A stretch of DNA of 50,092 nt from a virus, in IMG/VR virus record IMGVR_UViG_3300033149_005642, positions 1 through 50,092 of that record; one strand, 5' to 3'. Below are positions 11,522 to 50,092 of the stretch, piece by piece. The position numbers and the translations under genes were made by a program. Below the pieces are notes generated by a model. It had not been told where the DNA came from and ran no database searches. It worked only from the letters and a program-made list of their open reading frames with translations. Numbering within the stretch: the first letter of the stretch is position 1; every line of letters begins with the position of its first letter.

Positions 11522-11527
11522 CATATC

Positions 11528-14163: not shown

Positions 14164-14250
14164 CGGGGGACGGGGCATGTACGTATATCCTTCGATAGGC
14201 GTCCGGGACTCCTTCGCCAGCCTGGTACCGGCAAAACCCCGTCCCCCGTC
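14162..14250. repeat. Inverted pair of dispersed 14-bp elements
   Basis: A plus copy at 14162-14175 and a minus copy at 14237-14250 could fold into a 14-bp stem with a 61-base loop. The first copy supplies the stop codon of the upstream gene and lies where the ribosome site of the next gene (ATG 14177) should be. The second encodes Pro-Arg-Pro-Pro-Ser. Confidence 0.9.
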
Positions 14251-14638: not shown

Positions 14639-14649
14639 GGTAAGGCGAG

Positions 14650-16487: not shown

Positions 16488-16781
16488 ATGGGCGCGAATG
16501 CCAACCAGGGTATCTTGCAGGTGACGGGTATTTCGGGGACGGCGAAGGCCGTCCGGGATACGAGCACTCCGTGTACGCGGGTGCTGCTCCAAGCCGAGAA
16601 TGGGAACGCGGGGGTGCTCACGGTGGGCTTCTCTGCTTCTACGTGTTACCTGGAAGTGCCGAAACGGACGGAAGGCGGTTTGGTGTTGCCGGTTCACGAC
16701 CTGGCCGGGTTGTACGTGAAGACGAGTTCGGGAAGTTCCGACAAACTGAACGTCTACTACATCGCCGGTCCCATCGCCTGA
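16488..16781 (+). CDS. Small beta-rich virion-like protein
   Basis: A 97-residue protein from ATG 16488, with GGGAGG 7 bases upstream; the longer frame from 16449 lacks one. It is Gly/Val/Thr-rich with alternating hydrophobic residues, predicted almost all beta. Such small beta proteins in structural operons are often capsid decoration or stabilising proteins. It lies immediately upstream of the glycosyltransferase gene. No family recognised. Confidence 0.65.
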   Translation: MGANANQGILQVTGISGTAKAVRDTSTPCTRVLLQAENGNAGVLTVGFSASTCYLEVPKRTEGGLVLPVHDLAGLYVKTSSGSSDKLNVYYIAGPIA

Positions 16782-16798
16782 CGGAAAAGGGAGCCGAC

Positions 16799-20242: not shown

Positions 20243-20567
20243 GCTGCTGCTGTGTGATTGCGCCCGTCCGGGACCGATGACGGGGTACTGCGGAGTATGG
20301 GACGCCCGCCACAAACGAATCTCTCTTATTCTGTGGGCGGTCGAAGGCAACAACACGCGGGTGATTTCCCTGGACGGCGGTATCAAGGGATGTCCCGTGT
20401 GCCTCAAGCCTTACGATCGAAACAACTCAGCCGGACGCGATGCCATCCCCGATCCCGCCCTCAAACACCTGGACCGCGATGTTTCAACCCCGTCCCCCGT
20501 CAATCCGTCGGAACAAGAAGCTGATTCCCCTTCGTTCGACTTCGTGGACGCAGCCGAGGAGAGATGA
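20229..20567 (+). CDS. Zinc-ribbon-like protein (112 aa)
   Basis: ATG 20229 with GGGAGG upstream, overlapping the glycosyltransferase end by 14 bases. The N-terminus has Cys-Asp-Cys, a further Cys, and Cys-Pro-Val-Cys near residue 56, forming a plausible zinc site. The C-terminal part is disordered and acidic and includes Thr-Pro-Ser-Pro-Val from a copy of the dispersed element. Function unknown. Confidence 0.68.
   Translation: MEDHRLLLCDCARPGPMTGYCGVWDARHKRISLILWAVEGNNTRVISLDGGIKGCPVCLKPYDRNNSAGRDAIPDPALKHLDRDVSTPSPVNPSEQEADSPSFDFVDAAEER
20488..20501 (-). repeat. Dispersed 14-bp element
   Basis: Perfect copy in the disordered C-terminal half of the gene at 20229. Confidence 0.9.
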
Positions 20568-32845: not shown

Positions 32846-32849
32846 TCTT

Positions 32850-32910
32850 GACGGGGGACGGGGTACAAACTCCTGCGACCGTCCTGGATTCAAGAACCCC
32901 GTCCCCCGTC
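32850..32910. repeat. Inverted pair of elements between convergent genes
   Basis: A plus copy (32850-32863) and a minus copy (32897-32910) flank a 33-base loop exactly between the end of the rightward virion operon (32845) and the end of the leftward replication operon (32909). The TGA of the leftward gene is part of the second element. It is a plausible bidirectional transcription barrier, though no U-tract follows. Confidence 0.9.
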
Positions 32911-37306: not shown

Positions 37307-37320
37307 CCCCGTCCCCCGTC
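37307..37320 (-). repeat. Dispersed 14-bp element
   Basis: Perfect copy just downstream of the stop of the small basic protein gene (37323) and about 95 bp before the Cas4-like gene start. Confidence 0.9.
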
Positions 37321-37322
37321 AA

Positions 37323-37568: not shown

Positions 37569-38084
37569 GAGGGGTTCGGCGAGAAATCTTATTACGAGTT
37601 CGCCTACCGCTCTTCGGGAAGAGAGGGCATGAGACCGGGGGACGAGCAGAAGATGAAGGTCCTCCACAAGCGTCAGGGAAATAAGACGTTGGAGCATGTA
37701 CCATAAGCGAGACTGGGCATGGCGTGGGGAATAGTCGGTACTTGACGGGGGACGGAGTAATATGGAGGGGGTGGTTTCGAGGAGGAGAAGTTTGTGGGTG
37801 TAAGCGTTGAGGAAGCGATAGAGGGCGGAGGATTGGCGGGTCCAATCGGCGGTGGTGAAGTTCTGGATAAGTTCGCGGGTGGAGGCTTTGCGCTCGACGC
37901 CGACAAGAGTGGGGGCTTCGAGAAGGCAGTAATCACCGGCATCGAGCTTGCGACGAAGGGTCTTGATGTGGATGCGGTAGGGGCGGGCATTGAGCCAGAA
38001 AGTGACGGTGGATGGAAAGAGGAGAGGCTTTTTCTCACGGGTGTCGAGAAGGACGGTGAGGGTTGTAGGGGGATGAGAGTTCAT
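37548..38084 (-). CDS. ERCC4-type (XPF/MUS81-like) nuclease
   Basis: A 178-residue protein from ATG 38084 (GAGGAA upstream). The nuclease motif is complete: Leu-Leu-Asp14-Thr-Arg-Glu17, then Arg-Arg-Lys-Leu-Asp-Ala-Gly-Asp-Tyr, and Val-Gly-Val-Glu64-Arg-Lys66. This is the ERCC4 fold that cuts branched or flap DNA. No helicase or HhH domain is attached. In the replication module it could resolve junctions. A Leu-Arg-Pro-Pro-Ser-Ser segment corresponds to a 13/14 copy of the dispersed element. Confidence 0.9.
   Translation of the reverse strand: MNSHPPTTLTVLLDTREKKPLLFPSTVTFWLNARPYRIHIKTLRRKLDAGDYCLLEAPTLVGVERKASTRELIQNFTTADWTRQSSALYRFLNAYTHKLLLLETTPSILLRPPSSTDYSPRHAQSRLWYMLQRLISLTLVEDLHLLLVPRSHALSSRRAVGELVIRFLAEPLLTRTSK
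37744..37757 (+). repeat. Dispersed 14-bp element (13/14)
   Basis: One mismatch (G to A at position 13), within the ERCC4-type nuclease gene. Confidence 0.75.
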
Positions 38085-38112
38085 GGAAAAGTTCCTCGGT
38101 ACCATAGCTATG

Positions 38113-38742
38113 TCATATTACCATGAGATGGGTTGTGGGGGGATGGACGGCCACGTGCCACACGCAATGCATGTACGCGATGGAGTCCGTCTTCCCGTCG
38201 GGCGTAAAGGATAGGCGGGAAGAGTGGACGAAGGCGTAAAGGGGCATGTGGGCTTTCCAGAAAGGAAGACGTTTACGGGACTCGAAGAAGTTGAGACGGA
38301 GGAGCATGACGACCCAAGCCTCGCTTTCCTGGAGGGCTTTCTCGATGAAGTCCTGGGCAAGGGCAAAGGGAGGATTCGTGATGATGAGGTTATAGAGGAG
38401 ATGGGAAGGAGGTTCCCAAGTAAGGTAATCGGCGATAACGTCGGCGCGGGAATCGGTCCGTATATCGACGGTAGTGAGGGGAGGAGCATATCCTTCTCTC
38501 AGGGTGTACCGGTGGATGGCGTCAGGATAGGCCATAGAAGCGTCGGAGGAGCCTCCCGCAGCGGGGTCGAGGATGGGACCGTAAAGGAGGGCTTGTTTGA
38601 AAGAGGGACCGGGGGGTGTGGGGAGGACGGTTTTGTGTTCTTCGAGGTCGAGGATGGCCTTTAGAAAGTCGAGGATGGCGGAAACGGGGGTTACGTAATA
38701 GTCGCTGACGTGACGTTGACCGCCTCGTTTAGTGCTGCTCAT
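38113..38742 (-). CDS. DNA adenine-N6 methyltransferase
   Basis: A 209-residue protein; ATG 38742 has GGAGG 8 bases upstream and overlaps the polymerase end by 14 bases. Motif I is Leu-Asp59-Pro-Ala-Ala-Gly-Gly and motif IV is Thr-Asn123-Pro-Pro-Phe126, the NPPF signature of amino-methyltransferases. The Tyr-Tyr-Val-Thr-Pro start is typical of phage orphan methylases. It has no restriction partner and probably protects phage DNA; specificity is unknown. Confidence 0.9.
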   Translation of the reverse strand: MSSTKRGGQRHVSDYYVTPVSAILDFLKAILDLEEHKTVLPTPPGPSFKQALLYGPILDPAAGGSSDASMAYPDAIHRYTLREGYAPPLTTVDIRTDSRADVIADYLTWEPPSHLLYNLIITNPPFALAQDFIEKALQESEAWVVMLLRLNFFESRKRLPFWKAHMPLYAFVHSSRLSFTPDGKTDSIAYMHCVWHVAVHPPTTHLMVI

Positions 38743-41503
38743 TGCTGGGTCCTCCTTTTCGACGGCAATCGATGATCTGGGCATTGTAAGTTATAGGGAC
38801 CGTAGTCCCGTAATGGTGCTCAAGGAAGGGAAGGAGAGGAGGGTGGGTGAAATAGTGGTCTACGAGAGAGAGAACGGGGAGAAGTTCTCCGTCGGGGGGC
38901 ACGTCGAGGAGGAGGGAATCGTAGACCTGGAGAGGGATACGGGTGCGGAAGCGACGGGCGGTGAAGGCGCGAAGAAGGGCGTAGTGGATGCTGTGAAGGA
39001 TTTGAGCGGCGAGAGTTTGAATGGGGAAGTTGCAGATCTCATTGGTGTAGGTTTTGAGGACGGCGAGATCGCCTCCGCTGAAGGTACGGGACCAGCCGGT
39101 GGGAAGTTCGAGATAGCCTTGGTGGATGGCGGTCTCGATGAGAGAGTCTTGCCAACGGATGAGGACGGAGTGACGACGGTCGAAAGCATAGCAGAACCGG
39201 GAGACGTCGGAGAGATGAAGGTCGCCGCTGAAGGTTTCGGAGGTGATGAGGAGATGGTGAAGTTTGGTGGGGGAGGCGCGATAGAGCTTGCCGAAGTTGA
39301 TGGTCTTGGCGATATGGCGGGCGCGGGAATAATCGGGGTGGTCCGGGGTGAGGCCGGGATAGAAGAGTGTAGCGGTCTCGTGGTGGAAGTCGCGGCCTTC
39401 CCGGAAGACGGTGAGAAGAGCGGGATCGCCGGAGCAAAGGGCGGCCACACGAAGTTCGATCTGGGAAAGGTCAACCCAGACGAGGTAACCGTGGTAGCGG
39501 GAGGTGAGACAGTTCTTGATGGAATCCGGGAAGGTTTGCGCTCCCGGATTGGAACAGGTCACGCGGCCCTGTATGGTTCCGCCTCCCGCCTCCCGACCGG
39601 AAGTCTCGGCGCGGCTGTAGGGAACCGGATACCAGGAAGGATAAGCGTAGCCGATGGGGTACTTCTTGCCCCGTCCCCCGTCAGTTTTCGTTATGTGGGT
39701 TATGCCTTTGCGGGGGTTGTGGAGAAGAGGTTTTACATAGGAAGACCAGGCTTTGAAGGCTTCGGTGTGGTCGAGGAGGAAGCGGAGAGCGGGGTGGGAG
39801 TGCCGAGATTGAATGGTAAGGATGTTTTCGCGGCGAGTGCTGAGCTTGTTGGTCTTGGCGGTCCAGAGAAGAGGGAGAGTGGAGAGGTCGCCGGGTTTGA
39901 GGAGGGATTCGAGGAAGTCGCGTTTGGACTTGTCGGAGCCCTTGCCGCGAAGAATGAGATTGTGGGCGGCGGCTTGTTCTTCGAGGGAGGAGAGGGTGGA
40001 GCGGAGGGCGGAGGCGAGGGAGCGGAGCTTGGGGAGATCGAAAGTGATGCCGTTCTCGACGAGATCGAGAGTGATCCAGAGAAGTTCGGAGCGACGGGCG
40101 GCGCAGTGGGCTGAAAGTTTGGGGGAAGAGGAACCGTAGCGAGAGGCGATGGCGGAACGGAGATGGAAGAAGAGCTTGAGGGTGGCTTCGGTGTCGGTAG
40201 CGTTGTAGAGGTGGAGGTTGGGGTCGTCGGGGGAACGGGCCTTGGCGGAGAGGCGTGCGTTGACGGCGAGGTGCTCGTAGTCGGCCACGCCGAGGAGCTG
40301 GGCGAGGGGTTTGAGGGACTTTTCGGGGCGGAGTTCATAGTCGAGGTGGTTCAGGATGGCGATGTCGTCGAGGAGAAGAGGCGGAGAGAGGTAGGGGCGG
40401 AGGAGGGGATCGGCGGCGCGAAGGTAGGAGAGGTCGAAGCAGATGTTCTTGCCGAGAAGGACGGTGTCGGGACTGCGACGGAGGACATGGAGCCAGTTGC
40501 GGAGACGGACGCGGTCGTCGTGGTTGGGCCATAGGAACAGGATTGTGCGGAGGTTCCGGGCGGGGTTGGAAGGGTCGTAGGCGTCGTTGCGGTAGAAGGA
40601 GAGGCAGACGGAAACGACTTGACGGGGGACGGGGCAATGGTCAACGTAACGGGATTTGGTGGGGTGGAAGACGGTCTGGTCGCGGGACTGGAGAATGCCG
40701 TAGGTTTCTATGTCGATGGAGAAGTAGCGGGCGGGAGGCGTGGTGGGGAAGGGGATGGAGGCGGCGGGAGTGGGTGCGGCGGTGGGGGGTGGAAGAGCGC
40801 GGCGACCGGAAACGGTGGATTCGAGAAGATCGAAATGGGCGGCCATCGCTTCGATGTTGGAGGGAGAGCGTCCCGGAAGCGTGGCTGCAGGATGATAGGT
40901 GGCGAAGGTCGGGAAGGCGACGGACTGGAGGGCAAGGTAGGCGGGGTGGGACTGGTGGTTCTTTGACGGGGGACGGAATTTGACGTGGCGGCCTTGGAGA
41001 GTGAAAGCGGAAGCCAGTTTGAGGTTGAGGAGGGATTTGGTGGCGGTGGCCCCACAGCAAAGAACGTAGATGGTGGAGTAGCGGACGGAGAGGAAGTGGA
41101 GGTCGCGGTAAAGGTGGATGCGGCATATGGAAAGTTCGCGCTGGTTGGCGTTGCCCTCGTGGGGGAGGGGACAGCGGAGGGCGTTGGAGAGGAAGATGTC
41201 GCAGTGGTCGGAGAGGGAGGTGGTGGAGAGGAGGCGTTGGAGGAGCTGGCCGGAAGTGCCGACCCAGCAGGCGGATTGGGCGGTTTCTTCGCGGCCCGGC
41301 GCTTCGCCGACGATGAAGAGAGCCGAGGTGTGGGAGTTGTCGCCGGACCAGTGACGGGAAGGAATGGGATTGTGGGTTTGCGGATCGCGGAGCGGACAGG
41401 CTTCGCAGAGAGAAGAATCGAGAGGCGGGAAAGTGAGCTTGCCCGGCCAATCGTGGAGATGGAGAAACGGAAGAGTTTTGGAAAGAGTGTCGAGTCGCGG
41501 CAT
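38729..41503 (-). CDS. Uracil-DNA glycosylase / DNA polymerase I fusion
   Basis: A 924-residue protein from ATG 41503 (GGTGGAG upstream). Residues 1-215 are a family-4 uracil-DNA glycosylase: Fe-S cysteines Cys33, Cys36, Cys111 and Cys127, catalytic Gly66-Glu-Ala-Pro-Gly70, and Tyr-His204-Pro. Residues about 258-450 are a 3'-5' exonuclease (Asp264-Ile-Glu266, then Asn-Ile-Cys-Phe-Asp, then Tyr-Asn-Ala-Thr-Asp). The rest is family-A polymerase: motif A Val-Asp-Leu-Ser-Gln-Ile-Glu-Leu-Arg, motif B Ala-Lys-Thr-Ile-Asn-Phe-Gly-Lys-Leu-Tyr, motif C Val-Tyr-Asp-Ser instead of the usual His-Asp-Glu. Three element copies are translated within it. A strong promoter lies 60-90 bp upstream. Confidence 0.93.
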   Translation of the reverse strand: MPRLDTLSKTLPFLHLHDWPGKLTFPPLDSSLCEACPLRDPQTHNPIPSRHWSGDNSHTSALFIVGEAPGREETAQSACWVGTSGQLLQRLLSTTSLSDHCDIFLSNALRCPLPHEGNANQRELSICRIHLYRDLHFLSVRYSTIYVLCCGATATKSLLNLKLASAFTLQGRHVKFRPPSKNHQSHPAYLALQSVAFPTFATYHPAATLPGRSPSNIEAMAAHFDLLESTVSGRRALPPPTAAPTPAASIPFPTTPPARYFSIDIETYGILQSRDQTVFHPTKSRYVDHCPVPRQVVSVCLSFYRNDAYDPSNPARNLRTILFLWPNHDDRVRLRNWLHVLRRSPDTVLLGKNICFDLSYLRAADPLLRPYLSPPLLLDDIAILNHLDYELRPEKSLKPLAQLLGVADYEHLAVNARLSAKARSPDDPNLHLYNATDTEATLKLFFHLRSAIASRYGSSSPKLSAHCAARRSELLWITLDLVENGITFDLPKLRSLASALRSTLSSLEEQAAAHNLILRGKGSDKSKRDFLESLLKPGDLSTLPLLWTAKTNKLSTRRENILTIQSRHSHPALRFLLDHTEAFKAWSSYVKPLLHNPRKGITHITKTDGGRGKKYPIGYAYPSWYPVPYSRAETSGREAGGGTIQGRVTCSNPGAQTFPDSIKNCLTSRYHGYLVWVDLSQIELRVAALCSGDPALLTVFREGRDFHHETATLFYPGLTPDHPDYSRARHIAKTINFGKLYRASPTKLHHLLITSETFSGDLHLSDVSRFCYAFDRRHSVLIRWQDSLIETAIHQGYLELPTGWSRTFSGGDLAVLKTYTNEICNFPIQTLAAQILHSIHYALLRAFTARRFRTRIPLQVYDSLLLDVPPDGELLPVLSLVDHYFTHPPLLPFLEHHYGTTVPITYNAQIIDCRRKGGPSNEQH
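39669..39682 (-). repeat. Dispersed 14-bp element
   Basis: Perfect copy in the polymerase gene, encoding Asp-Gly-Gly-Arg-Gly before the palm region. Confidence 0.9.
40621..40634 (+). repeat. Dispersed 14-bp element
   Basis: Perfect copy in the polymerase gene, within the exonuclease domain (Cys-Pro-Val-Pro-Arg). Confidence 0.9.
40965..40978 (+). repeat. Dispersed 14-bp element (12/14)
   Basis: Two terminal mismatches; lies in the glycosylase domain and encodes Arg-Pro-Pro-Ser (177-180), in a loop before the catalytic Tyr-His-Pro. Confidence 0.6.
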
Positions 41504-41549
41504 GGCAGTGCTCCACCGAAGAACGGAACGGATTGTTGGGAGTTCTGTG

Positions 41550-41563
41550 TCCCGTCCCCCGTC
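41550..41563 (-). repeat. Dispersed 14-bp element (13/14) at polymerase transcription start
   Basis: Abuts the -10 box of the polymerase promoter, so the transcript would begin inside the element. Confidence 0.75.
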
Positions 41564-41592
41564 AGTATAGCGGATGGAAGGGGACGTGTCAA
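41564..41592 (-). promoter_or_regulatory. Strong sigma70-like promoter for DNA polymerase
   Basis: Read leftwards: TTGACA (41592-41587), 17-bp spacer, TATACT (41569-41564), about 60 bp upstream of ATG 41503. One mismatch from the consensus hexamers. Confidence 0.85.
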
Positions 41593-41700
41593 GCGAAAAA
41601 AGATAAAATAAGGTAAAATTTTTTTTGGGAAGAGCGAGTGGAAATTTCAATGTAGGGGGGCCTCTCCCCCATGCCTTGATGAACGTCGAGATGGGCTCGT

Positions 41701-41729
41701 CGTAACTCTTTGCGGTGCAAGAGGTTATG
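41701..41729. promoter_or_regulatory. Operator-like dyad upstream of the ubiquitin-like cassette
   Basis: An imperfect 29-bp dyad with outer arms CGTAAC and GTTATG, preceded by TCGTC. A similar 29-bp dyad (CGTAA ... TTACG) sits upstream of the other promoter at 46720-46748. Confidence 0.6.
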
Positions 41730-41745
41730 ACTTGCTTCCTCTTTA

Positions 41746-41774
41746 TTGATCGCGCGCGCGCGACCTGGTATGCT
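41746..41774 (+). promoter_or_regulatory. Candidate promoter with alternating CG spacer
   Basis: TTGATC (41746-41751), 17-bp spacer that is mostly (CG)n, TATGCT (41769-41774). It would drive the cassette starting at 41852. Confidence 0.6.
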
Positions 41775-41851
41775 GGCGGTGTCGGCGCGCGTCGCGTCGA
41801 GGGAAGGGTAGGTGGGGGTGGTATGGGGTGGTATAGGACGGGAAGGAGGTG

Positions 41852-42115
41852 ATGGATGTTGGCACGGTGATAGAGGAGGTGGAGGCGTTCCTGGATGGTA
41901 GGGAGGCCCACCGGGAAGGCCTACGTTCCACCGGTCGGGAGCTATGGAGGGGCCCCACCCTCGTGGCCCGGTGGAACAGAGGGGCAGTCGAGGTCCTTTC
42001 CCCTGTAAGGGGGGAGTCCCCCCAGGTGAGGAAGGACAGGGTGGTGCTGGTGCGGGCGATCGCACTGGCAATGAGGAGAAGACAACATGGACACCATACA
42101 GGTGACGGTCATTGA
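41852..42115 (+). CDS. Hypothetical first gene of ubiquitin-like cassette
   Basis: An 87-residue protein. The sequence AAGGAGGTGAT overlaps the proposed ATG 41852, so the exact start is uncertain; GTG 41867 is an in-frame alternative. The protein is helical at the N-terminus (Val-Ile-Glu-Glu-Val-Glu-Ala-Phe-Leu), basic in the middle, and ends His-Gly-His-His. It overlaps the ubiquitin-like gene by 29 bp. No family recognised; too short for a normal E2 enzyme. Confidence 0.6.
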   Translation: MDVGTVIEEVEAFLDGREAHREGLRSTGRELWRGPTLVARWNRGAVEVLSPVRGESPQVRKDRVVLVRAIALAMRRRQHGHHTGDGH

Positions 42116-42287
42116 GGGGGTGGAGCGGACCCTCCTCCAGCTCCCCGTGGGGGCTACCCTGGCGGATGTGGCCAGGGGCCGTGTGGCTACACTGAACGGT
42201 AACCCCGTGACGGGGGATTACCGGGAGGCGAAGCTGTCGGACGGTGACCAGGTGGTCCTGACGAAGGCCACGGAGGTCGCCGGGTAG
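42087..42287 (+). CDS. Ubiquitin-like (ThiS/MoaD-like) protein
   Basis: A 66-residue protein, ATG 42087 after GAGGAG. It has the beta-grasp pattern of a small ubiquitin-like or ThiS protein: Ile-Gln-Val-Thr-Val-Ile opening strand, Leu-Pro-Val-Gly-Ala-Thr-Leu-Ala-Asp-Val helix start, Leu-Asn-Gly-Asn-Pro-Val, and Leu-Ser-Asp-Gly-Asp-Gln-Val-Val-Leu near the end. It ends Val-Ala-Gly, a single terminal glycine rather than Gly-Gly, with no residues to trim. The next genes encode an E1-like and a JAMM-like protein, so it is probably activated at the C-terminus either for protein conjugation or as a sulfur carrier. No cysteine, sulfur-transferase or cofactor gene lies nearby, which favours conjugation. 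Confidence 0.82.
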   Translation: MDTIQVTVIEGVERTLLQLPVGATLADVARGRVATLNGNPVTGDYREAKLSDGDQVVLTKATEVAG

Positions 42288-42304
42288 TAGTCGTGGTAGG
42301 AGGC

Positions 42305-42337
42305 GGGGGATCGGGGCCACGGGGGCTCCGGTCCCCC
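42305..42337 (+). other. Hairpin between ubiquitin-like and E1 genes
   Basis: A 10-bp stem (GGGGGATCGG with CCGGTCCCCC, one G-T pair) and 13-base loop, 25 bases before the E1 start. No U-tract follows, so it may attenuate, protect the upstream mRNA, or mask translation rather than terminate. Confidence 0.6.
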
Positions 42338-42362
42338 ATTCTCCATCGAGGAGGGAGGAGAT

Positions 42363-43085
42363 ATGAGCGAGAAGAGGACGTGGATAATCGTTGGGGCGGG
42401 GGGGCTGCTGTACCATAGCCTGCCAGCCCTGGCGGTGTATGCAGGGGAGCGGGTGCTGACGGTGGACCCCGACATTGTGGAGGAGGGCAACGCGGGGAGA
42501 CAGTGGCCGGGAGGCAGGGGCTGGGGGAAGGCCCTGCTGGCCGGGAAGGCGTTGGGGGAGTTGGCGGGGTGTACGGAGGTTCGTCCCGTCTCGGTGGAGG
42601 CGGAGAAGGATGAGGTGGCGATGTGGTTGGGTATGGAGGGGAGCCGTCCGGGGAAGAAGGTGGGGGTTGTGTGTTTGCCCGACAACGACAAGGCCAGGAT
42701 GGGGTGCGTGGCCGGGTTCAGGAGGGCCGGGGTCCCTGATGCGGTGGCGATCCTGGCGGGGAACAATGTGCAGGGGGGGTGGGTAGCGGGGACGAGGACG
42801 GACGAGAAGGGACGGCTGGTGTGGAACCCGGTGAGGGCACTGGGAATAGGACGCCAGCAGGCAAGGGGAGAGAGGAGGCCCTGCGGGTGGAACCAGCAGA
42901 GTCTGGAGGGGAATGCCAGGACGGCGGGCTTGGTGGCCCAGGCCCTGGCGGCGATGGTGGAGGGAGGAGCCCCATGCTGTTATGGGGAATGGGAGTTGGG
43001 GGAGGAGAAGGAATTGGGTCGTCAGGACAGGTGGCTGTGGCAAGTGGGACCACAGGTGCCGGGTTTCCATAAGGAGGGTGAGTGA
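42363..43085 (+). CDS. E1/ThiF-like activating enzyme
   Basis: A 240-residue protein, ATG 42363 after GGAGGGAGGAG. The Rossmann start is Ile-Ile-Val-Gly-Ala-Gly-Gly-Leu, followed by Val-Asp-Pro-Asp-Ile-Val-Glu-Glu-Gly-Asn-Xaa-Xaa-Arg-Gln, the ThiF/MoeB/E1 adenylation signature. A later Val-Cys-Leu-Pro-Asp-Asn-Asp matches the conserved Asp-Asn strand. Five cysteines could include the thioester residue; no CxxC zinc pair is present. Single-domain size is like MoeB/ThiF or PRTRC-type ThiF proteins. It follows the ubiquitin-like gene and overlaps the JAMM gene by one base. Confidence 0.88.
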   Translation: MSEKRTWIIVGAGGLLYHSLPALAVYAGERVLTVDPDIVEEGNAGRQWPGGRGWGKALLAGKALGELAGCTEVRPVSVEAEKDEVAMWLGMEGSRPGKKVGVVCLPDNDKARMGCVAGFRRAGVPDAVAILAGNNVQGGWVAGTRTDEKGRLVWNPVRALGIGRQQARGERRPCGWNQQSLEGNARTAGLVAQALAAMVEGGAPCCYGEWELGEEKELGRQDRWLWQVGPQVPGFHKEGE

Positions 43086-44095
43086 TGGTAGAGGGACTGT
43101 GGTATCAGGGGGGCAAGATTTGGAGAGTTGCGAGGGGGGAAGGCGTGGAGGCCGTCGTTCCGGTGACGGACCGGTGGCTGGAGTCGGTGCAGGTAGAGGG
43201 GGAGGAGGGGGAGCCCAGGTTGGTGAAACTGAGTGAGGAGTTGATACCTCCCCCACGGGAGGTGGGGACCTGGTTGAGGTTCCTCCGGCCCACCGCCCAG
43301 AGGATGGGGGTGGAGGTGGGGGGGTATGTGTTGAGGAGGAAGAAGAAGGGGGAGGAAGGGGGATGGGAGTGGACGATGTATTGTCCTCCCCAGGAGTGCA
43401 GTGCGGCAGGGTGGTCGGTGACCGAGGTGGACCAGAAGGTCCACCTCCCGCTCGCCCTGAGGATAGATGGGGGTGGATGGCAGAGGATAGGGACGATGCA
43501 CCTGCATCCGGGAGGTGCACGGCACGGGGCACCGGAACCTTCCGGGATTGATGAGCGGGAATGGGAGGACAATCCGGGGGTCTATCTTATAGGGTGGACC
43601 CAGGAGGGGAGTCACGTGTCGGTGAGCGTGGCGGTGATAGGCCATGTATTCCCGTTTGTGGTGGGGATACGGGCCATCATGGGGGGAGACGGGGTCGTAT
43701 GGACCGAGGGGGGCAAACCCCTTGGGGAATTAGTGAGGAAGAGGACGTATTCCTCCTCGTACTTGTGCTCCACCGCGTGGGAGTGGAGTAAGGGAGGTAC
43801 GGGGCGGAGCGCCGAGGAGAACTGGAGGACGGGATACGACCGGGTGTTCGGGTACGGGTACGGGTACGAGGACTACGGGAAGGAGGACATCGGTGGGGGA
43901 GTACAGGGGGATGTCGGGAGTTACAGTTATGTACCGGCATCGCTGGACGAGGCTATCCTGGATGCTGAGGCCAGTGTGAGTGAGGCACTGGACTGGGCCG
44001 AGGTGGCCGGGACGGAGAGGGAGCAGAAGAAGATAAAGAGGGCCCTGCGCCTCATACAGGAGGTGGAGGCCGCCCGCATGGAAAGGGGGGAGTGA
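43085..44095 (+). CDS. JAMM/JAB-like deubiquitinase-type protein
   Basis: A 336-residue protein; ATG 43085 has AGGAGGG 6 bases upstream. Glu77 (Val-Glu-Val-Gly-Gly), His139-Leu-His141-Pro, Ser153 and Asp156 form the JAMM zinc and catalytic set in the expected order. The gap between His141 and Asp156 is 14 residues rather than the canonical 10, so the loop is longer. An N-terminal ~60-residue domain and a Tyr/Gly-rich C-terminal region (with Gly-Tyr-Gly-Tyr-Gly-Tyr) flank the core. Expected role: removing or processing the ubiquitin-like protein; this depends on the active site being functional. Confidence 0.8.
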   Translation: MVEGLWYQGGKIWRVARGEGVEAVVPVTDRWLESVQVEGEEGEPRLVKLSEELIPPPREVGTWLRFLRPTAQRMGVEVGGYVLRRKKKGEEGGWEWTMYCPPQECSAAGWSVTEVDQKVHLPLALRIDGGGWQRIGTMHLHPGGARHGAPEPSGIDEREWEDNPGVYLIGWTQEGSHVSVSVAVIGHVFPFVVGIRAIMGGDGVVWTEGGKPLGELVRKRTYSSSYLCSTAWEWSKGGTGRSAEENWRTGYDRVFGYGYGYEDYGKEDIGGGVQGDVGSYSYVPASLDEAILDAEASVSEALDWAEVAGTEREQKKIKRALRLIQEVEAARMERGE

Positions 44096-44096
44096 G

Positions 44097-45683
44097 ATGA
44101 GTCAGCAGACCAGTAAGACCAGGTGGCCGGGGATGGTGAGTTGTAGGACCAGGAACCCGTTGCATCGTCCTCTAGTGGAAGGGGTCCCGGAGGAGCGCGA
44201 GTGGACGGGGGTCCTGTTGTGGTGGAGGGCCCTGGGGCGGGGAGAGTGTAGGGTGTACTCCCATGGTGGTATGCAGTTCACGAGGACTGGGCGGTTGGCA
44301 CCCACGGTGCTCTTGAGGGATGGGGGGGAGGACCGGGTGTGGGGGAAATATGAGGACGGGATGCTGGAGTTCGGCATACCAGGGGCGATATTGGAGGCCA
44401 TGCGGGGGAGAGCTGAGGAGGGCCTGGACGTGGTGATCCCCCAGATGGCGGATTGTAGGGTGCCCCAGTCGAGTAGTGGAGCGTCCCTGTGCCTGGTGGT
44501 CCTGAATGGGACCGTCATGTATCCATGTACGGGGGTGGATTACGGGGACGTTCGGAGCGGCCAGGTGTTGAAGGGAGTAGTGACCGGGTGGGGGGTGAGT
44601 CCCACGAATGAGCTGGTGAGGAGGGGATGGTGGGCGTACCACCTGGAGGATGAGGTTCTCGACAAGTGGGCCGAGATACTGGGGAGTTGGAAGGAGCAGG
44701 GAATAGGTCAGAGAATGGGGATACTGGAGTGGAGGCCGGGGAAGGGGAGCACCTGGATCGATGCATGGTTGGAGAAGGGGACGACGAGGCGGATTGTGCG
44801 GATGAAGAGGTACGGTCCCGTGAAGGGGTTCCGGATCGGGGAGGAAGAGGAGAGGGAACCGGTCAGCCGGAGGCAGCGGTGGACGGTGGCGCAGAGGTAC
44901 CGGGTGGGACGGTGGTGCCAGGTGTGTGGGAGACTGGTGAAGGATGGGAGAGTGTGGGTACACTCCGACTGTGGTAGGGAGTGGTTGGAGGTGCCGTGTG
45001 ACCAGTGCGGGGAACTCGTCGAGGTCTCCGGGGATGAATACGAGGAGGTTGTGGTCGAGCAAGGACGGTATGTATGTGAGGACTGTAGGGGACCCGTCTA
45101 CTACTGCGCGGGGTGTGGGGAGAGACTGGACGAGGAGGACGTGTATACGCATGATGATGACGTGTACTGCCATTCCTGTTGGGAGGACGTGTTAGGGGAA
45201 TTCCAGCGGGAAGAGGAGAGGGAGTGTGTGGTGTGTGGAAGTAGGGTGACCGGGTATACTGACGCGGAGTGGGACGAGAACAGGGAGTTGTGTGAGGACT
45301 GCTACAGGGAAGCTGAGCGGGCAAGGCACTGCTCCCGGTGTACCAGGACGGAGAGGGGGTACATGGACGAGGAGTGGGAGGAGGGAGGAGAGATATGTAC
45401 CAGGTGCTGGGCGAGGGACCAGGGCATACTGGTATGCGAGTCGTGTGGATTGTGGATGAGGGGGTTCGACGAGAGGGTGTGGAGGCGGTGGGGCAGGAGG
45501 TGCCCGGAGTGTGCGAACGCTTACGGAGGGGTGTGGGAAGGAGAAGTAGAGAGGGAATTGGAGCAGTATGCGGGGTCGCGTAGGATCTCCATAAGGACGA
45601 GGAGCCGGGGAGGGTTCGTCCCCCGCGCCCCGGTTAGGGAATATAGGAGGGCGAGCGTTCCCCCAGGAGGTAACCAGGGATAG
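44097..45683 (+). CDS. Multi-zinc-ribbon protein of the ubiquitin-like cassette
   Basis: A 528-residue protein. The first ~275 residues are globular with Trp/Val/Gly-rich strands and contain Cys-Arg-Val and Tyr-Pro-Cys that could be an E2-like active cysteine, but I cannot confirm this. From about residue 280 to 480 there are around ten CxxC pairs (Cys-Gln-Val-Cys, Cys-Asp-Gln-Cys, Cys-Glu-Asp-Cys, Cys-Ala-Gly-Cys, Cys-His-Ser-Cys and more), arranged like tandem treble-clef, RING or LIM-like zinc modules. Such modules are common in E3 ligases, so this is the best candidate ligase or substrate adaptor of the cassette. The tail is basic. Role inferred from context. Confidence 0.7.
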   Translation: MSQQTSKTRWPGMVSCRTRNPLHRPLVEGVPEEREWTGVLLWWRALGRGECRVYSHGGMQFTRTGRLAPTVLLRDGGEDRVWGKYEDGMLEFGIPGAILEAMRGRAEEGLDVVIPQMADCRVPQSSSGASLCLVVLNGTVMYPCTGVDYGDVRSGQVLKGVVTGWGVSPTNELVRRGWWAYHLEDEVLDKWAEILGSWKEQGIGQRMGILEWRPGKGSTWIDAWLEKGTTRRIVRMKRYGPVKGFRIGEEEEREPVSRRQRWTVAQRYRVGRWCQVCGRLVKDGRVWVHSDCGREWLEVPCDQCGELVEVSGDEYEEVVVEQGRYVCEDCRGPVYYCAGCGERLDEEDVYTHDDDVYCHSCWEDVLGEFQREEERECVVCGSRVTGYTDAEWDENRELCEDCYREAERARHCSRCTRTERGYMDEEWEEGGEICTRCWARDQGILVCESCGLWMRGFDERVWRRWGRRCPECANAYGGVWEGEVERELEQYAGSRRISIRTRSRGGFVPRAPVREYRRASVPPGGNQG

Positions 45684-45694
45684 GAGGGAGGACA

Positions 45695-45898
45695 ATGAGA
45701 CGGGAAGAGAGTAGTAGGGACGTGGAGAAGAGGGGCAAGAGGAGGAAGAGGGGCATGGAGTACGTAGAGGGACACATCAGGGTAGAGGACTTCTTCCAGT
45801 GCGCGGGGTGCCACCGGGTCCTCCCGGTCGAGGAAGCGGAACAGTATGACCGGGGGAGGTGGTGGTGCTGGAGGTGCTCGCCGGACCCGTTCGAGTAA
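45695..45898 (+). CDS. Small zinc-ribbon protein (67 aa)
   Basis: Start ATG after GGAGGGAGGAC. A very basic N-terminus precedes Cys-Ala-Gly-Cys and Cys-Trp-Arg-Cys, a four-cysteine zinc ribbon. Located in the cassette directly after the large zinc protein, it may be an accessory adaptor. Uses AGG/GGG codons like its neighbours. Confidence 0.72.
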   Translation: MRREESSRDVEKRGKRRKRGMEYVEGHIRVEDFFQCAGCHRVLPVEEAEQYDRGRWWCWRCSPDPFE

Positions 45899-45929
45899 GG
45901 TGGTATGGGAAGATATGGGAGGACATGGG

Positions 45930-46100
45930 ATGAGAATCGTGATAAGGTTGGAAGGGGGGTACCTGTCGGAAGTGATGGTGCCCCCAGGGTATCCGTGGAG
46001 GGTGATACTATGGGATAGGATGGACGATCGGGAGGATGACGTGGAGTACGATGAGGATACGGAGGGGTTGGTACCCGTGGAATGGGAGGTGAAGCCATGA
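45930..46100 (+). CDS. Acidic small protein (56 aa)
   Basis: ATG 45930 has GGGAGG 7 bases upstream. A beta-like N-terminus (Arg-Ile-Val-Ile-Arg-Leu) is followed by a very acidic half (Asp-Asp-Arg-Glu-Asp-Asp, Asp-Glu-Asp-Thr-Glu). It overlaps the next gene by 4 bases, indicating translational coupling. Function unknown; acidic small phage proteins are often DNA mimics or inhibitors, but there is no direct evidence. Confidence 0.6.
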   Translation: MRIVIRLEGGYLSEVMVPPGYPWRVILWDRMDDREDDVEYDEDTEGLVPVEWEVKP

Positions 46101-46309
46101 AGTGCAGGATATGCGGGAAGAAGGGGTTCAAGGCGGCGTGGGAGGTGGCCGCCCACAAGGCCAAGGAACATCCGGGGGCACCGAGCAGGAGGGAAGAACG
46201 GATGACGGGGGACGGGGTAAGGGGGAAGAAGAAGGGGGGAATGGAAGAGTTCGTGTTCCGGCACTGTCCCCACTGTGGGGGCAGGTTGCCGAGGGTAGTA
46301 GGGTTTTAG
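46097..46309 (+). CDS. C2H2 plus zinc-knuckle protein
   Basis: A 70-residue protein, ATG 46097 after GGGAGG. The N-terminal Cys-Arg-Ile-Cys ... His-Lys-Ala-Lys-Glu-His is a C2H2-type finger; the C-terminal His-Cys-Pro-His-Cys-Gly-Gly is a second metal site. The linker between them contains Thr-Gly-Asp-Gly-Val, encoded by a perfect copy of the dispersed element, so the element sits neatly between two domains. Likely nucleic-acid or protein binding. Confidence 0.72.
   Translation: MKCRICGKKGFKAAWEVAAHKAKEHPGAPSRREERMTGDGVRGKKKGGMEEFVFRHCPHCGGRLPRVVGF
46204..46217 (+). repeat. Dispersed 14-bp element
   Basis: Perfect copy in the interdomain linker of the zinc protein gene at 46097. Confidence 0.9.
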
Positions 46310-46326
46310 GTGGGGGACACAGGACG

Positions 46327-46563
46327 ATGAGTAGGACAGTGGACGAGGTTGTGGAAGGGTTGGGGCGATGGGGGATGCACGCCAAGACCATCGCCAGGGT
46401 GACGGGCCTGAGCGAGGGGCAGGTCCGGTACAGGTTGAAGGAGAAGGGGGTGAGACTGAGGGAGTATCGAGATGGAAGGAATAGAGAGGGGAGGGGGGTG
46501 CTGTGGAGAGTAGCCGGGGTGAGGGTCAGGAGGGGAAGGAGAGTGAAGGGGAGGGCAGCATGA
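46327..46563 (+). CDS. Helix-turn-helix DNA-binding protein
   Basis: A 78-residue protein, ATG 46327. Residues 10-45 read as a resolvase-like helix-turn-helix (Thr-Ile-Ala-Arg-Val-Thr-Gly-Leu-Ser-Glu-Gly-Gln-Val-Arg-Tyr-Arg-Leu). An Arg-rich tail follows. As the last gene of the cassette it may autoregulate the operon, for example at the dyads near 41.7 and 46.7 kb. Confidence 0.72.
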   Translation: MSRTVDEVVEGLGRWGMHAKTIARVTGLSEGQVRYRLKEKGVRLREYRDGRNREGRGVLWRVAGVRVRRGRRVKGRAA

Positions 46564-46575
46564 GCGTGATTGTTT

Positions 46576-46589
46576 GACGGGGGACGGAG
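46576..46589 (+). repeat. Dispersed 14-bp element (13/14)
   Basis: One mismatch; directly precedes the terminator hairpin at 46593. Confidence 0.75.
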
Positions 46590-46592
46590 AGG

Positions 46593-46632
46593 AACCCCGG
46601 TCGCCGGAAGGGTGGGTGGCCGGGGTTTCTTT
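46593..46632 (+). terminator. Terminator-like hairpin after the cassette
   Basis: A 10-bp stem (AACCCCGGTC with GGCCGGGGTT) and 13-base loop followed by tctttg. The U-tract is weak, so termination may be partial. Confidence 0.65.
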
Positions 46633-46719
46633 GTGGGGATAGGGGAGGGAGTGGAAATTTGAGTGTAGGGGTAGGGGGGGTGTCTGGGGGGGTGGGTGAG
46701 GTGGGTGGGCGTGGGTCGT

Positions 46720-46748
46720 CGTAAAGCGTTAGGGCGCAATGAGTTACG
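46720..46748. promoter_or_regulatory. Operator-like dyad, second copy
   Basis: Outer arms CGTAA and TTACG, 29 bp in all, preceded by TCGTC as at 41697. It lies 8 bp upstream of the -35 at 46756. Confidence 0.6.
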
Positions 46749-46755
46749 GAAAGAG

Positions 46756-46784
46756 TGGACAAAGGGGGGCGGGCATGGTAGGAT
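46756..46784 (+). promoter_or_regulatory. Candidate promoter for the gene at 46847
   Basis: TGGACA (46756-46761), 17-bp spacer, TAGGAT (46779-46784). Confidence 0.5.
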
Positions 46785-46846
46785 ATGGTAGGCGGTCCAG
46801 ATCGGCTGGACCGGATCGTAAGGTCCCTAGAGGAAAGGGATTAGGG

Positions 46847-47389
46847 ATGAGTAAGGACAAGGGCGAACGCAAGGGCGAACGCAAGGGCGACGCACAAAAG
46901 GACCTGATGGACCGTCTCCATCAGGCGACGGCGGCGGAGATCGCCGCCGTGAAAGAGGCGGGGGGGCTTATTCTTGCCCGCCGCCACGGGCAGGATATCC
47001 GTAGTCTTCGCATTCCTCTGTTGTGGGGGGACATTGAAGCGCCGCAACGGTGGGGTAGTATCCGTATCCTCAAGCGGGCAGGGATACGGGTAGAAGAGGT
47101 GTATCCCGCCATAGAGGCGCTCGATCATGTCTTGCGGCAAGGCGCGGGCGCTGGCGAGTGGCGATACGTCCCCCCCAGTGGCGGAGTGCCCTTAGTGCAG
47201 GCATTCCGCGCCCGTCTCAGTGGCGGCAAGGGCGCAGCGTACATAGAGCCCGCCAGCGGGGCAGGACGCTCTACAGCGTATATCGGTGTTCTGGGCTGGC
47301 TTGCAGAGTCGGAGACGGAGACGGAGTCGGAGACGGAGACGGAGTCGGAGACGGAGACGGAGTCGGACTCGGACTCTGAAGCCGAGTAG
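46847..47389 (+). CDS. Hypothetical protein with acidic Glu-Thr-Glu-Ser tail
   Basis: A 180-residue protein. ATG 46847 is preceded by AGGAAAGGG; the frame is open from 46739 but no ribosome site supports that start. A basic repeat (Lys-Gly-Glu-Arg) opens it, a mixed alpha/beta core follows (Ile-Leu-Ala-Arg-Arg, Tyr-Val-Pro-Pro-Ser-Gly-Gly), and the last ~25 residues are an acidic tail from three 18-nt repeats. The acidic tail is reminiscent of SSB-type or DNA-mimic tails. Function unknown. Confidence 0.65.
   Translation: MSKDKGERKGERKGDAQKDLMDRLHQATAAEIAAVKEAGGLILARRHGQDIRSLRIPLLWGDIEAPQRWGSIRILKRAGIRVEEVYPAIEALDHVLRQGAGAGEWRYVPPSGGVPLVQAFRARLSGGKGAAYIEPASGAGRSTAYIGVLGWLAESETETESETETESETETESDSDSEAE
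47311..47366 (+). repeat. Tandem 18-bp coding repeat
   Basis: Three copies of gagtcggagacggagacg, encoding the Glu-Ser-Glu-Thr tail. Confidence 0.85.
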
Positions 47390-48136: not shown

Positions 48137-48150
48137 CCCCGTCCCCCGTC
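48137..48150 (-). repeat. Dispersed 14-bp element
   Basis: Perfect isolated copy in the gene-free region. Confidence 0.9.
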
Positions 48151-48413
48151 AATGAGCCTCCCGAAATCTGTCTCATTTTGCGACGATCGGCCCCGACCCC
48201 CCGGCCTGCCCCATACCCTCTCTGAGCGAAATCTCATTGAGCCGTCTTTCTCTACTACCTAGTACCTCTTCAGAAGCATACAAAAACTCTTCCCCTAGAT
48301 GGTCTACGAGCACGCAAAGGAAATTGAGATTTGTCATAACTCCTTTCGCTGCAACGATCCCCCATTACCCCCGTTTTCACAAAGGCCCTTTCTTACTCTT
48401 CGCGGGGTGTCAC

Positions 48414-48488: not shown

Positions 48489-49019
48489 ATGACGCAGCCA
48501 CAGCCACAGCCACATACGCCGTTCCGTCCGAAGACTTATGAAAGGTTCACGTGGGGGTGCGGCCACACGACGAATGTTCCCCTCCGCGTCCCCCACCCTC
48601 CGACTTTCCGCACGGCCCTTTGTCCGGACTGCTATTTCCACGCCCATCCGCCTCCTCCCCGACGAGGACGCTACGCCCACCGGATAACCGGCACCTACTA
48701 TTGCGGCCATCCTTTTCGTATACACGTTCCTCGCGGCGACGAAGAACGGCGGCTCGCCTGGTTCGTGGCCGTCAACTCTCTCTGCCCCGCCTGCATCTTC
48801 GAGTGGGAGACCGCAGAGGCTATTCGGCAACGAGGGCTACCTGACGACTCTCCCGCTTACCAGCCTGACGACCGAACCGCCTTCACACTCCACCTCACCA
48901 AGTCGGCCATTTGGAGGCTTGAAACCCTGGCGGCCCGTCACCGCCAGAAACCCTCCGATTTCCTGATGGACCTTCTTCGGTCCCTTCTTCCCGGCCCCGC
49001 AGCGGAGGACTCGAAATGA
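48489..49019 (+). CDS. Zinc-ribbon protein with ribbon-helix-helix-like C-terminus
   Basis: A 176-residue protein, ATG 48489 after GGAGG. Three cysteine groups (Gly-Cys-Gly-His, Cys-Pro-Asp-Cys, Cys-Gly-His, Cys-Pro-Ala-Cys) suggest one or two zinc sites. The last 40 residues (Phe-Thr-Leu-His-Leu ... Trp-Arg-Leu-Glu-Thr-Leu-Ala) resemble an RHH/CopG DNA-binding unit. First gene downstream of a good promoter; probably an early regulator. Confidence 0.72.
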   Translation: MTQPQPQPHTPFRPKTYERFTWGCGHTTNVPLRVPHPPTFRTALCPDCYFHAHPPPPRRGRYAHRITGTYYCGHPFRIHVPRGDEERRLAWFVAVNSLCPACIFEWETAEAIRQRGLPDDSPAYQPDDRTAFTLHLTKSAIWRLETLAARHRQKPSDFLMDLLRSLLPGPAAEDSK

Positions 49020-49417
49020 GTATCCCATTCAATACCCGTCGGCCCGACGAATCCATCTTCCATCGCTCCGTCCCCCGTCAAATCGTCGAAGAAATCGCCG
49101 CCCACACCGGCCACCACCTGATCGAGGTAGAGGACATCCTGGCCGCTTATCATCGCGCCATCCTCTACCGTGTCCTTCTGGGCCGCCCCGTCGTCCTGCG
49201 CGGCTTCGGCACCTTCTCGTCCCGCCTCTATCATGCGAGACAGGTCTTCTGCCCTGCCGACGGCACTACCCGTGAAGTCCCGAACCGCCGCATCCTTCAC
49301 TTCAAAATGAGTCCCACTCTCCGCCCCTACATGTCCACAAGCCCGGCAGCCTACAACGATCCCGAAACCCCCGGCACAACCCCCCCGAAAAGCTCCGAGG
49401 ACCCCGAAAAGCCTTGA
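49016..49417 (+). CDS. HU/IHF-like DNA-binding protein
   Basis: A 133-residue protein overlapping the previous stop (ATGA), with GGAGG upstream. The core matches bacterial histone-like proteins: helical N-terminus, then Leu-Arg-Gly-Phe-Gly-Thr-Phe, Ala-Arg-Gln, a beta-arm with a Pro near the tip, and Leu-His-Phe-Lys-Met-Ser-Pro-Thr-Leu. Pro/Ser-rich extension at the C-terminus. Likely bends or compacts DNA, for example for replication or packaging. A 13/14 element copy is translated near the start. Confidence 0.88.
   Translation: MSIPFNTRRPDESIFHRSVPRQIVEEIAAHTGHHLIEVEDILAAYHRAILYRVLLGRPVVLRGFGTFSSRLYHARQVFCPADGTTREVPNRRILHFKMSPTLRPYMSTSPAAYNDPETPGTTPPKSSEDPEKP
49066..49079 (-). repeat. Dispersed 14-bp element (13/14)
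   Basis: One mismatch, encoding Ser-Val-Pro-Arg near the N-terminus of the HU-like protein. Confidence 0.7.
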
Positions 49418-49486: not shown

Positions 49487-50092
49487 ATGAGCGCACACGA
49501 GATTCTGAAGGGTGAACGGAACGAAGACGGGGGACGGGGTACTTCTTCCCCCCTTCTTCCTTCTCCGGTCTACAAGGTCCTCAAGCTCGGCAACTCTCTC
49601 GAACTCCGAACCGTCGAGGAGTTGGCGATAGAGTGGGGATTCAAGACCAAATCGACCGCCGTAAAATTTCTCCGCGCCCTGAACGTTCCCCTCCTCCACA
49701 TCAACCGGGATTCCTACTTCTCGGTTCATGCGCTGGAGATGGCGCTCTTCAGCGTGACGGAATGGGGAGCGAAAGGTTTTGCGGCTCCGGGTAGTCACTT
49801 CCGCGACAAGCGCTATCCTTATCTCCGCCACCAACCCAACGTGGAAAAGATACGCCTCGCGCCCAGCGACATGCCGTCTCTGAAAGAACGGGAAGCTCTC
49901 CACAGGAGAATGAGCGAGGCGGCGGCGCGAAGGCTGGATGTTGTAGGGAAGGCCGTCTCTCGACTCCTCCACCAACCCAAGCCCCGCCGGGGAAGACGGA
50001 TGCCCCCCAAGGCCCCGTCCCCCGTCAAAAGTCGGCGGTCGGACAAACGCGTCAGCACCCCTGCCGCCGTGCCTGACATGGCATCTGCTATA
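49487..50092 (+). CDS. Junction-spanning HTH-like protein (5' part)
   Basis: ATG 49487 follows GGAGGAG; the frame stays open to the last base and continues at base 115 in the same frame to the stop at 207 (232 residues in all). Residues about 35-85 (Thr-Val-Glu-Glu-Leu-Ala-Ile-Glu-Trp-Gly-Phe-Lys-Thr-Lys) resemble a helix-turn-helix or excisionase-like module; a helical, then basic Pro-rich tail follows. An element copy encodes Asp-Gly-Gly-Arg-Gly near the N-terminus and another lies in the tail. Perhaps a regulator or a small terminase; unproven. Confidence 0.75.
   Translation, partial: MSAHEILKGERNEDGGRGTSSPLLPSPVYKVLKLGNSLELRTVEELAIEWGFKTKSTAVKFLRALNVPLLHINRDSYFSVHALEMALFSVTEWGAKGFAAPGSHFRDKRYPYLRHQPNVEKIRLAPSDMPSLKEREALHRRMSEAAARRLDVVGKAVSRLLHQPKPRRGRRMPPKAPSPVKSRRSDKRVSTPAAVPDMASAI
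49526..49539 (+). repeat. Dispersed 14-bp element
   Basis: Perfect copy near the start of the junction-spanning gene. Confidence 0.9.
49979..50092. repeat. Terminal direct repeat, right copy (114 bp)
   Basis: Identical to bases 1-114, including the element copy at 50013-50026. Confidence 0.95.

What the first reader, a model, noticed from the sequence alone, without database searches (positions are those of the whole stretch)
41852..46563. Phage-encoded ubiquitin-like conjugation cassette
Consecutive plus-strand genes encode a beta-grasp ubiquitin-like protein ending in Gly, a ThiF/E1-like adenylating enzyme, a JAMM-motif protein and a 528-residue protein with about ten CxxC pairs, followed by small zinc proteins and an HTH protein. 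Known bacterial conjugation cassettes (Bil, PRTRC and related types) combine Ubl, E1, E2 and JAB. Here a lytic-looking phage carries the set, without a recognisable E2 but with a RING/treble-clef-like zinc protein. It could modify host or virion proteins or counter host defence. A sulfur-carrier role is the main alternative.
Basis: partly seen in the sequence, partly recalled or inferred. Interest (0 to 1): 0.95.

Follow-up and report, generated by a model that had tools for sequence, protein, structure and literature searches.

The report
E2-less phage ubiquitin-like protein cassette
A complete phage genome carries a coupled set of genes for a ubiquitin-like protein, the enzyme that activates it and the protease that would cut it off, in a deep lineage that lacks the usual E2 transfer enzyme; related sets that do have an E2 turn out to exist in many other viral contigs and a few isolated phages, so this is an unusual variant rather than a new kind of system.

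Summary
The genes are real and mostly as described. 42087-42287 is a ThiS/MoaD-type beta-grasp protein ending in Gly, 42363-43085 an E1-like adenylyltransferase, 43085-44095 an intact JAMM/JAB protein, 44097-45683 a 528-aa protein (X) with 11 CxxC pairs. E1, JAB and X are apparently translationally coupled. A distant complete relative (G005, TerL 35% identical) has the same order Ubl-E1-JAB-X, so the set is one unit; its Ubl passes Pfam's ThiS cut-off. Four other relatives show no such genes. The RING reading is not supported: no RING or LIM signature, and G005's X lacks the zinc repeats. No E2 was detected in the window or G005. The E1 is a distant relative of the PRTRC ThiF family (profile E=3.6e-13), and complete PRTRC-type Ubl/E2/JAB/E1 sets occur in other phages, including the isolate Burkholderia phage BgVeeders33. 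This is therefore a divergent, E2-less variant of a known kind, seen here in only two genomes. Most likely mechanism: E1 activates the Ubl and attaches it without an E2, as in archaeal SAMP or Urm1, JAB reverses it, X perhaps chooses targets. A sulfur-carrier role is the main rival. Function is inferred, not shown.

The parts
42087..42287 (+). Ubl: 66-aa ThiS/MoaD-type beta-grasp protein ending ...EVAG
   Evidence: Syntenic homologue in G005 passes the Pfam ThiS cut-off; best of 2238 ORFs with a ThiS/MoaD/L119 profile; similarity to the L119 Ubl, shuffle p=0.003. Structure model weak.
42363..43085 (+). E1: 240-aa ThiF/MoeB-like adenylyltransferase without rhodanese domain; G11xGG, D35xD37xV, N43xGR46Q47, K56, D107, candidate catalytic C174
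   Evidence: hhalign to PRTRC ThiF 97.9%, E=3.6e-13; phmmer to L119 E1 4.5e-11; alignment with MoeB/ThiF
43085..44095 (+). JAB/JAMM protease, 336 aa from ATG 43085 (ORF opens at GTG 43082); E78, H140, H142, S154, D157 in the numbering of the 337-aa ORF
   Evidence: Pfam Prok-JAB E=9.9e-6 above cut-off; motif; homologue in L119 E=1.8e-4; PRTRC_A profile E=5.6e-4, probability only 29.7%
44097..45683 (+). X: 528 aa; N-terminal part shared with G005 (conserved PCTG with Cys144), C-terminal six serial CxxC...CxxC zinc sites (residues 274-472)
   Evidence: CxxC count, no RING or LIM pattern; weak similarity to the L119 477-aa protein, E=0.009 and shuffle p=0.005, same gene position; no E2 match
45695..45898 (+). 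67-aa protein with one CxxC...CxxC zinc site, 11 bases after X
   Evidence: Sequence and ribosome-binding site; only sub-threshold zinc families. Part of the unit by position only; not seen in G005.
41849..42115 (+). 88-aa protein overlapping the Ubl start, unknown
   Evidence: ORF and ribosome-binding site; sub-threshold match only. Belonging to the unit is uncertain.
46082..46309 (+). 75-aa protein with a C2H2-like and a CxxC site
   Evidence: Sub-threshold zinc-finger matches. Belonging to the unit is uncertain.
46327..46563 (+). 78-aa HTH protein (MSRTVDEVV...)
   Evidence: Sub-threshold HTH matches in residues 90-115 of the longer ORF. Belonging to the unit is uncertain.

Best explanation
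A phage-encoded, E2-independent ubiquitin-like activation and deconjugation unit. Inferred steps: the E1-like protein adenylates the C-terminal glycine of the ThiS-type Ubl and takes it over as a thioester, probably on Cys174; the activated Ubl is passed to amino groups of target proteins without an E2, as archaeal UbaA/SAMP and eukaryotic Uba4/Urm1 do; protein X, encoded directly after JAB, binds targets through its N-terminal part and zinc repeats or relays the Ubl through Cys144; the JAMM protease cleaves the conjugates and, in the relative G005 whose Ubl ends in Gly-Ala, would first expose the glycine. Shown here: the genes, their families, intact E1 and JAMM signatures, conserved order in two divergent phages, no recognisable E2. 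Not shown: any conjugation, the targets, the role of X.
For: Same order Ubl-E1-JAB-X in two complete genomes with TerL only 35% identical; E1 relationship to the PRTRC E1s, which sit with E2s; intact adenylation and JAMM residues; ThiS-type Ubl with C-terminal Gly; coupled genes; no thiamine, molybdopterin or rhodanese gene among the window proteins scanned. Precedent: SAMP1 with HvJAMM1, where Ubl linkage to MoaE is cut by a JAMM protease (PMC4443979); that SAMP conjugation needs no dedicated E2 is general knowledge, not tested here.
Against: No conjugation shown; the Ubl is ThiS-like, which fits sulfur transfer equally well; only one terminal Gly; the C-terminal half of E1 is not significantly similar to the G005 E1 on its own; homology of X to the G005 protein is weak; PRTRC function itself is unknown.
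Confidence: 0.45

Rival explanations
1. Sulfur-carrier module: E1 activates the ThiS-like Ubl, a host sulfurtransferase makes a C-terminal thiocarboxylate, and the Ubl donates sulfur to a tRNA, metabolite or protein, with JAB trimming the Ubl as proposed for QbsD/QbsE-type operons.
For: Ubl belongs to the ThiS family in Pfam; no E2 in window or G005; ThiS-JAB-E1 sets occur in sulfur-metabolism operons (row 4e, PMC1779556); the G005 Ubl has one residue after Gly that JAB could trim.
Against: No rhodanese, SirA, cysteine synthase, thiamine or molybdopterin gene among the window proteins scanned; E1 profile match is to PRTRC ThiF; X has no counterpart in sulfur operons that I know of.
Confidence: 0.27
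2. Hidden-E2 cascade: the N-terminal part of X is a diverged E2 with Cys144 as the active cysteine, so the set is a full E1-E2-JAB-Ubl cascade with E2 fused to a zinc target-binding part.
For: X sits in the operon where other phages have an E2 gene nearby; NG-x5-PCTG is conserved between X and the G005 protein, and PRTRC-type E2s have N-x7-C-x-G.
Against: No profile match to 96 PRTRC_B/E2 sequences (0.3%, E=0.19); nothing with hmmsearch; no Pfam E2 family at E up to 1; the conserved W and H that follow the Cys in PRTRC_B are not recognisable.
Confidence: 0.12
3. Counter-defence: the phage set interferes with a host Ubl-based defence (Bil or type II CBASS), for example JAB removing host conjugates or the Ubl/E1 acting as decoys.
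For: Host defence systems use the same chemistry (PMC10097602, PMC11153139); a phage JAB is a plausible deconjugase.
Against: A complete Ubl plus E1 set is more than a deconjugase needs; host unknown; no PADLOC match; no direct evidence.
Confidence: 0.1

Closest known systems
PRTRC cassettes (operon type 6d of Iyer et al. 2006: Ubl, alpha-helical protein, E2, JAB, E1), on plasmids and phages
   Same: Small Ubl with C-terminal Gly, E1 of the same broad group (E=3.6e-13), JAB of similar layout (weak, E=5.6e-4), carried on mobile DNA
   Different: No E2, no PRTRC F, E or ParB partner recognised; Ubl is ThiS-like and does not match PRTRC_C; order Ubl-E1-JAB-X instead of Ubl-F-E2-JAB-E1; E1 on its own very long branch
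Phage PRTRC-type sets (Burkholderia phage BgVeeders33; Bacillus phage KLEB27-3; Salmonella phage Arash; IMG/VR L036/L159, L044, L060)
   Same: Phage genomes with E1 and JAB next to each other, Ubl seen in some
   Different: Those sets have a recognisable E2
Archaeal SAMP system (SAMP1, UbaA, HvJAMM1)
   Same: ThiS/MoaD-type Ubl, single E1, JAMM deconjugase, no dedicated E2 (PMC4443979; the no-E2 point from general knowledge)
   Different: Chromosomal and archaeal; genes not an operon with an X protein; E1 sequence not compared here
ThiS/ThiF, MoaD/MoeB and QbsC/D/E-type sulfur carrier sets
   Same: ThiS-family Ubl and ThiF/MoeB-type adenylation core
   Different: No metabolic partners found; E1 lacks the C-terminal CxxC pairs of MoeB/ThiF
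Lambda/T1 tail proteins TAPI (Ubl) and TAPK (JAB + NlpC/P60)
   Same: Phage Ubl and JAB
   Different: Those have no E1 and lie in the tail module; here an E1 is present, no NlpC/P60 was found, and the place is next to DNA polymerase

Membership tests
PRTRC system (type 6d) | E1 of the PRTRC ThiF family | tested here: inconclusive
   Homologous (97.9%, E=3.6e-13) but outside the family in a tree, on a very long branch; no NCBIfam PRTRC match
PRTRC system (type 6d) | E2 (PRTRC_B / Prok-E2_D) | tested here: not met
   No match in window or G005
PRTRC system (type 6d) | Ubl of the PRTRC_C / Prok_Ub family | tested here: not met
   No profile match; the G005 Ubl matches ThiS instead
PRTRC system (type 6d) | JAB of the PRTRC_A family | tested here: inconclusive
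   hhalign E=5.6e-4 but probability 29.7%; no NCBIfam PRTRC_A match
SAMP / Urm1-type E2-less conjugation | ThiS/MoaD-type Ubl, one E1, JAMM protease, no E2 | tested here: met
   likeness of composition, not descent
SAMP / Urm1-type E2-less conjugation | Covalent Ubl-protein conjugates | not testable with these tools
   Needs an experiment
Sulfur-carrier set (ThiS/ThiF, MoaD/MoeB, QbsCDE) | Cofactor-biosynthesis or sulfurtransferase partners nearby | tested here: not met
   None among the window proteins scanned with Pfam; host genes not known
Bil (BilA-D) defence | Ubl, E2, JAB and E1 of the Bil families | tested here: inconclusive
   No E2; no PADLOC match, though I did not verify which Bil models that library holds
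Type II CBASS Cap2/Cap3 | E2-E1 fusion (Cap2) beside a CD-NTase | tested here: not met
   E1 is a 240-aa single domain and no neighbour matches a nucleotidyltransferase
Tail assembly TAPI/TAPK | Ubl and JAB-NlpC/P60 in the tail module | tested here: not met
   JAB without NlpC/P60; beside DNA polymerase
RING E3 ligase | C3HC4 cross-brace pattern in X | tested here: not met
   Pattern search negative; six serial CxxC...CxxC sites instead

The most novel reading that the evidence does not exclude
A phage lineage has evolved its own E2-independent ubiquitin-like conjugation system, with a new transfer or target-selecting protein (X) in place of E2, used to tag host or virion proteins reversibly during infection.
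Probability: 0.25. Interest if true: 0.85.

Novelty: new variant of a known kind. Interest (0 to 1): 0.55.

Why it matters
If it conjugates, it would be a compact viral E1-Ubl-JAMM system working without an E2, a minimal model for how ubiquitin signalling arose from sulfur-carrier chemistry. It would also make testable what Ubl cassettes do for phages; the survey here suggests that related PRTRC-type sets are common on viral contigs, and their function is unknown.

Tried and rejected
Direct searches with JAB, the 528-aa protein and E1 in IMG/VR and INPHARED found nothing; TerL gave no close relatives. A first E1 pattern with wrong spacing found nothing and cost a scan. AlphaFold on JAB alone failed (pLDDT 37) and on the Ubl pair was weak (pLDDT 57); the fold search had nothing below E=1; several weak hits are beta-grasp domains, which I do not count. 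RING and LIM readings of the zinc part were rejected by pattern. An E2 in X was looked for by profile and not found. A Prok-JAB search with the genome search missed even the window itself, so its negatives in G001-G004 were not used; those genomes were read in full instead. An artefact of the G-rich strand was rejected by codon-position composition and by conservation in G005. Searches of bacterial and archaeal genomes for this E1 subfamily found none. A homology between the 88-aa gene and an 85-aa gene of L119 was suspected by eye and not supported.

Full report
WHAT THE WINDOW IS. The window is a whole IMG/VR virus record of 50,092 bases with an exact 114-base direct repeat at its ends, so it is probably a complete genome of 49,978 unique bases. 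It has a terminase large subunit (4189-6000), a minus-strand replication block with a UDG-DNA polymerase A fusion (38729-41911), an AAA ATPase and a PD-(D/E)XK nuclease, and an HU-type protein at 49016-49417. The finding lies on the plus strand immediately beyond the start of the polymerase gene.

OBSERVATION. Ubl (42087-42287), E1 (42363-43085), JAB (43085-44095), X (44097-45683) and a 67-aa zinc protein (45695-45898) follow each other with ribosome-binding sites such as AAGGAGG and GAGGAG. The E1 stop and the JAB ATG overlap, and JAB and X are one base apart, so translation is probably coupled (inference). G+C by codon position follows the pattern of TerL and Pol in these genes but not in the long antisense ORF 41589-43532.

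JAB AND E1. Pfam Prok-JAB matches above its curated cut-off (E=9.9e-6), and the JAMM ligands are present: Glu78, HLHP from His140, Ser154, Asp157 (numbering of the 337-aa ORF that opens at GTG 43082). E1 alone is only a weak ThiF match (E=0.03). Against a profile of plasmid PRTRC ThiF proteins it reaches 93.9%, E=1.6e-7; together with the homologue of the relative and against a broader phage/plasmid profile, 97.9%, E=3.6e-13 over 195 columns, with Cys174 near the conserved Cys. The adenylation core residues of MoeB/ThiF are kept in the alignment.

A RELATIVE WITH THE SAME SET. A pattern for D.D.V...N.GRQ in IMG/VR brought in L119, from a 55,120-base record (G005) with a 127-base terminal repeat. 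Its genome plan matches the window (TerL 35%, the gene after TerL 36%, Pol 32% identical). On the strand opposite to its polymerase it has Ubl (79 aa), an 85-aa protein, E1, JAB and a 477-aa protein. E1 and JAB are clear homologues of the window's (phmmer 4.5e-11 and 1.8e-4). The Ubl passes Pfam's ThiS cut-off. The 477-aa protein resembles the N-terminal part of X only weakly (E=0.009, shuffle p=0.005) but stands in the same place. It has no zinc repeats, so these are not a conserved part of the system. Four other relatives (G001-G004, TerL about 40% in the three that hold it) show no such genes when their sequences are read, so the set was lost or gained within the group.

UBL. The 66-aa protein has no significant match alone. 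The case rests on its place, its similarity to the L119 Ubl (shuffle p=0.003, best match among G005 ORFs) and its rank, first of 2238 ORFs, against a ThiS/MoaD/L119 profile (E=0.044, next 3.6). The AlphaFold model is low in confidence and the fold search inconclusive.

NO E2, NO RING. A profile of 96 PRTRC_B/E2 sequences finds nothing in the window or G005 and does not match X (0.3%). X has 11 CxxC pairs in six serial sites, with no RING or LIM pattern. A shared PCTG motif leaves a hidden E2 possible but unsupported.

HOW COMMON. Of 120 IMG/VR stretches with such an E1 motif, 36 encode all four PRTRC-type parts (Ubl, E2, JAB, E1) and 92 encode E1 with E2. Not all are certain phages: only 5 of 34 records tested had a Terminase_6N match. 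L036/G012, however, has a complete Ubl-E2-JAB-E1 set next to genes that I read, without a family search, as terminase and portal, and L044, L060, L096 and L100 lie in records with a terminase match. Isolated phages also carry sets: Burkholderia phage BgVeeders33 (PRTRC_E, Prok-E2_D E=2e-39, JAB, ThiF-like), Bacillus phage KLEB27-3 and Salmonella phage Arash. In Arash the proteins Gp246-Gp248, which correspond to E1, JAB and a weak E2-like match, were among 116 proteins detected in particle preparations (PMC10585845); the list also holds other enzymes, so it is weak evidence for a virion place. In a tree, window and G005 form their own clade (100/98) on a very long branch. No other member was found in IMG/VR or in the genome collection by pattern.

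MECHANISM. E1-Ubl activation is the safest inference. What follows is open: E2-less conjugation as in SAMP (PMC4443979) or Urm1 is my first choice, sulfur transfer the second, a hidden E2 in X the third, and counter-defence is possible under any of them. No conjugation, target or phenotype has been shown.

VERDICT. A real cassette and a divergent, E2-less variant of a known kind of Ubl system in phages.

Noticed in passing
30 sites over the window, e.g. 35-50(-), 8923-8938(-), 20488-20503(-), 31358-31373(+), 32848-32863(+), 37307-37322(-), 40619-40634(+), 48137-48152(-): A dispersed 16-base motif TTGACGGGGGACGGGG (core GACGGGGGACGGGG), on both strands, 30 copies with up to 2 mismatches against 0.17 expected; absent from all 154 loci fetched until then, including the related phages. 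Flanks share nothing obvious. Role unknown.
   Followed up: partly
1-114 and 49979-50092: Exact 114-base direct terminal repeat: the record is probably a complete genome; relatives G004 and G005 have terminal repeats of 123 and 127 bases.
   Followed up: partly
16571-19288 (+): 905-aa protein with a family 2 glycosyltransferase and a methyltransferase domain in one chain, among genes of unknown function.
   Followed up: no
38729-41911 (-): Uracil-DNA glycosylase fused to DNA polymerase A; the homologue in G005 spans the ends of that record.
   Followed up: partly
38000-47000: Very strong GC skew (0.3-0.48) irrespective of gene direction, which creates long spurious antisense ORFs.
   Followed up: partly
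46739-47389 (+): 216-aa protein with an acidic (SETETE)n tail and no family match.
   Followed up: no
10938-15200: Long Thr-rich simple-repeat stretches in predicted virion genes (family D1).
   Followed up: no
L157:1519-4539 (Salmonella phage Arash): E2-like, JAB and E1 genes of an isolated phage are annotated as structural or hypothetical; their products were detected in particle preparations.
   Followed up: partly
L155:186-4672 (Burkholderia phage BgVeeders33): Complete unrecognised PRTRC-type set in an isolated phage: PRTRC_E, alpha-hel2, Prok-E2_D, DUF2016+Prok-JAB, ThiF-like.
   Followed up: partly
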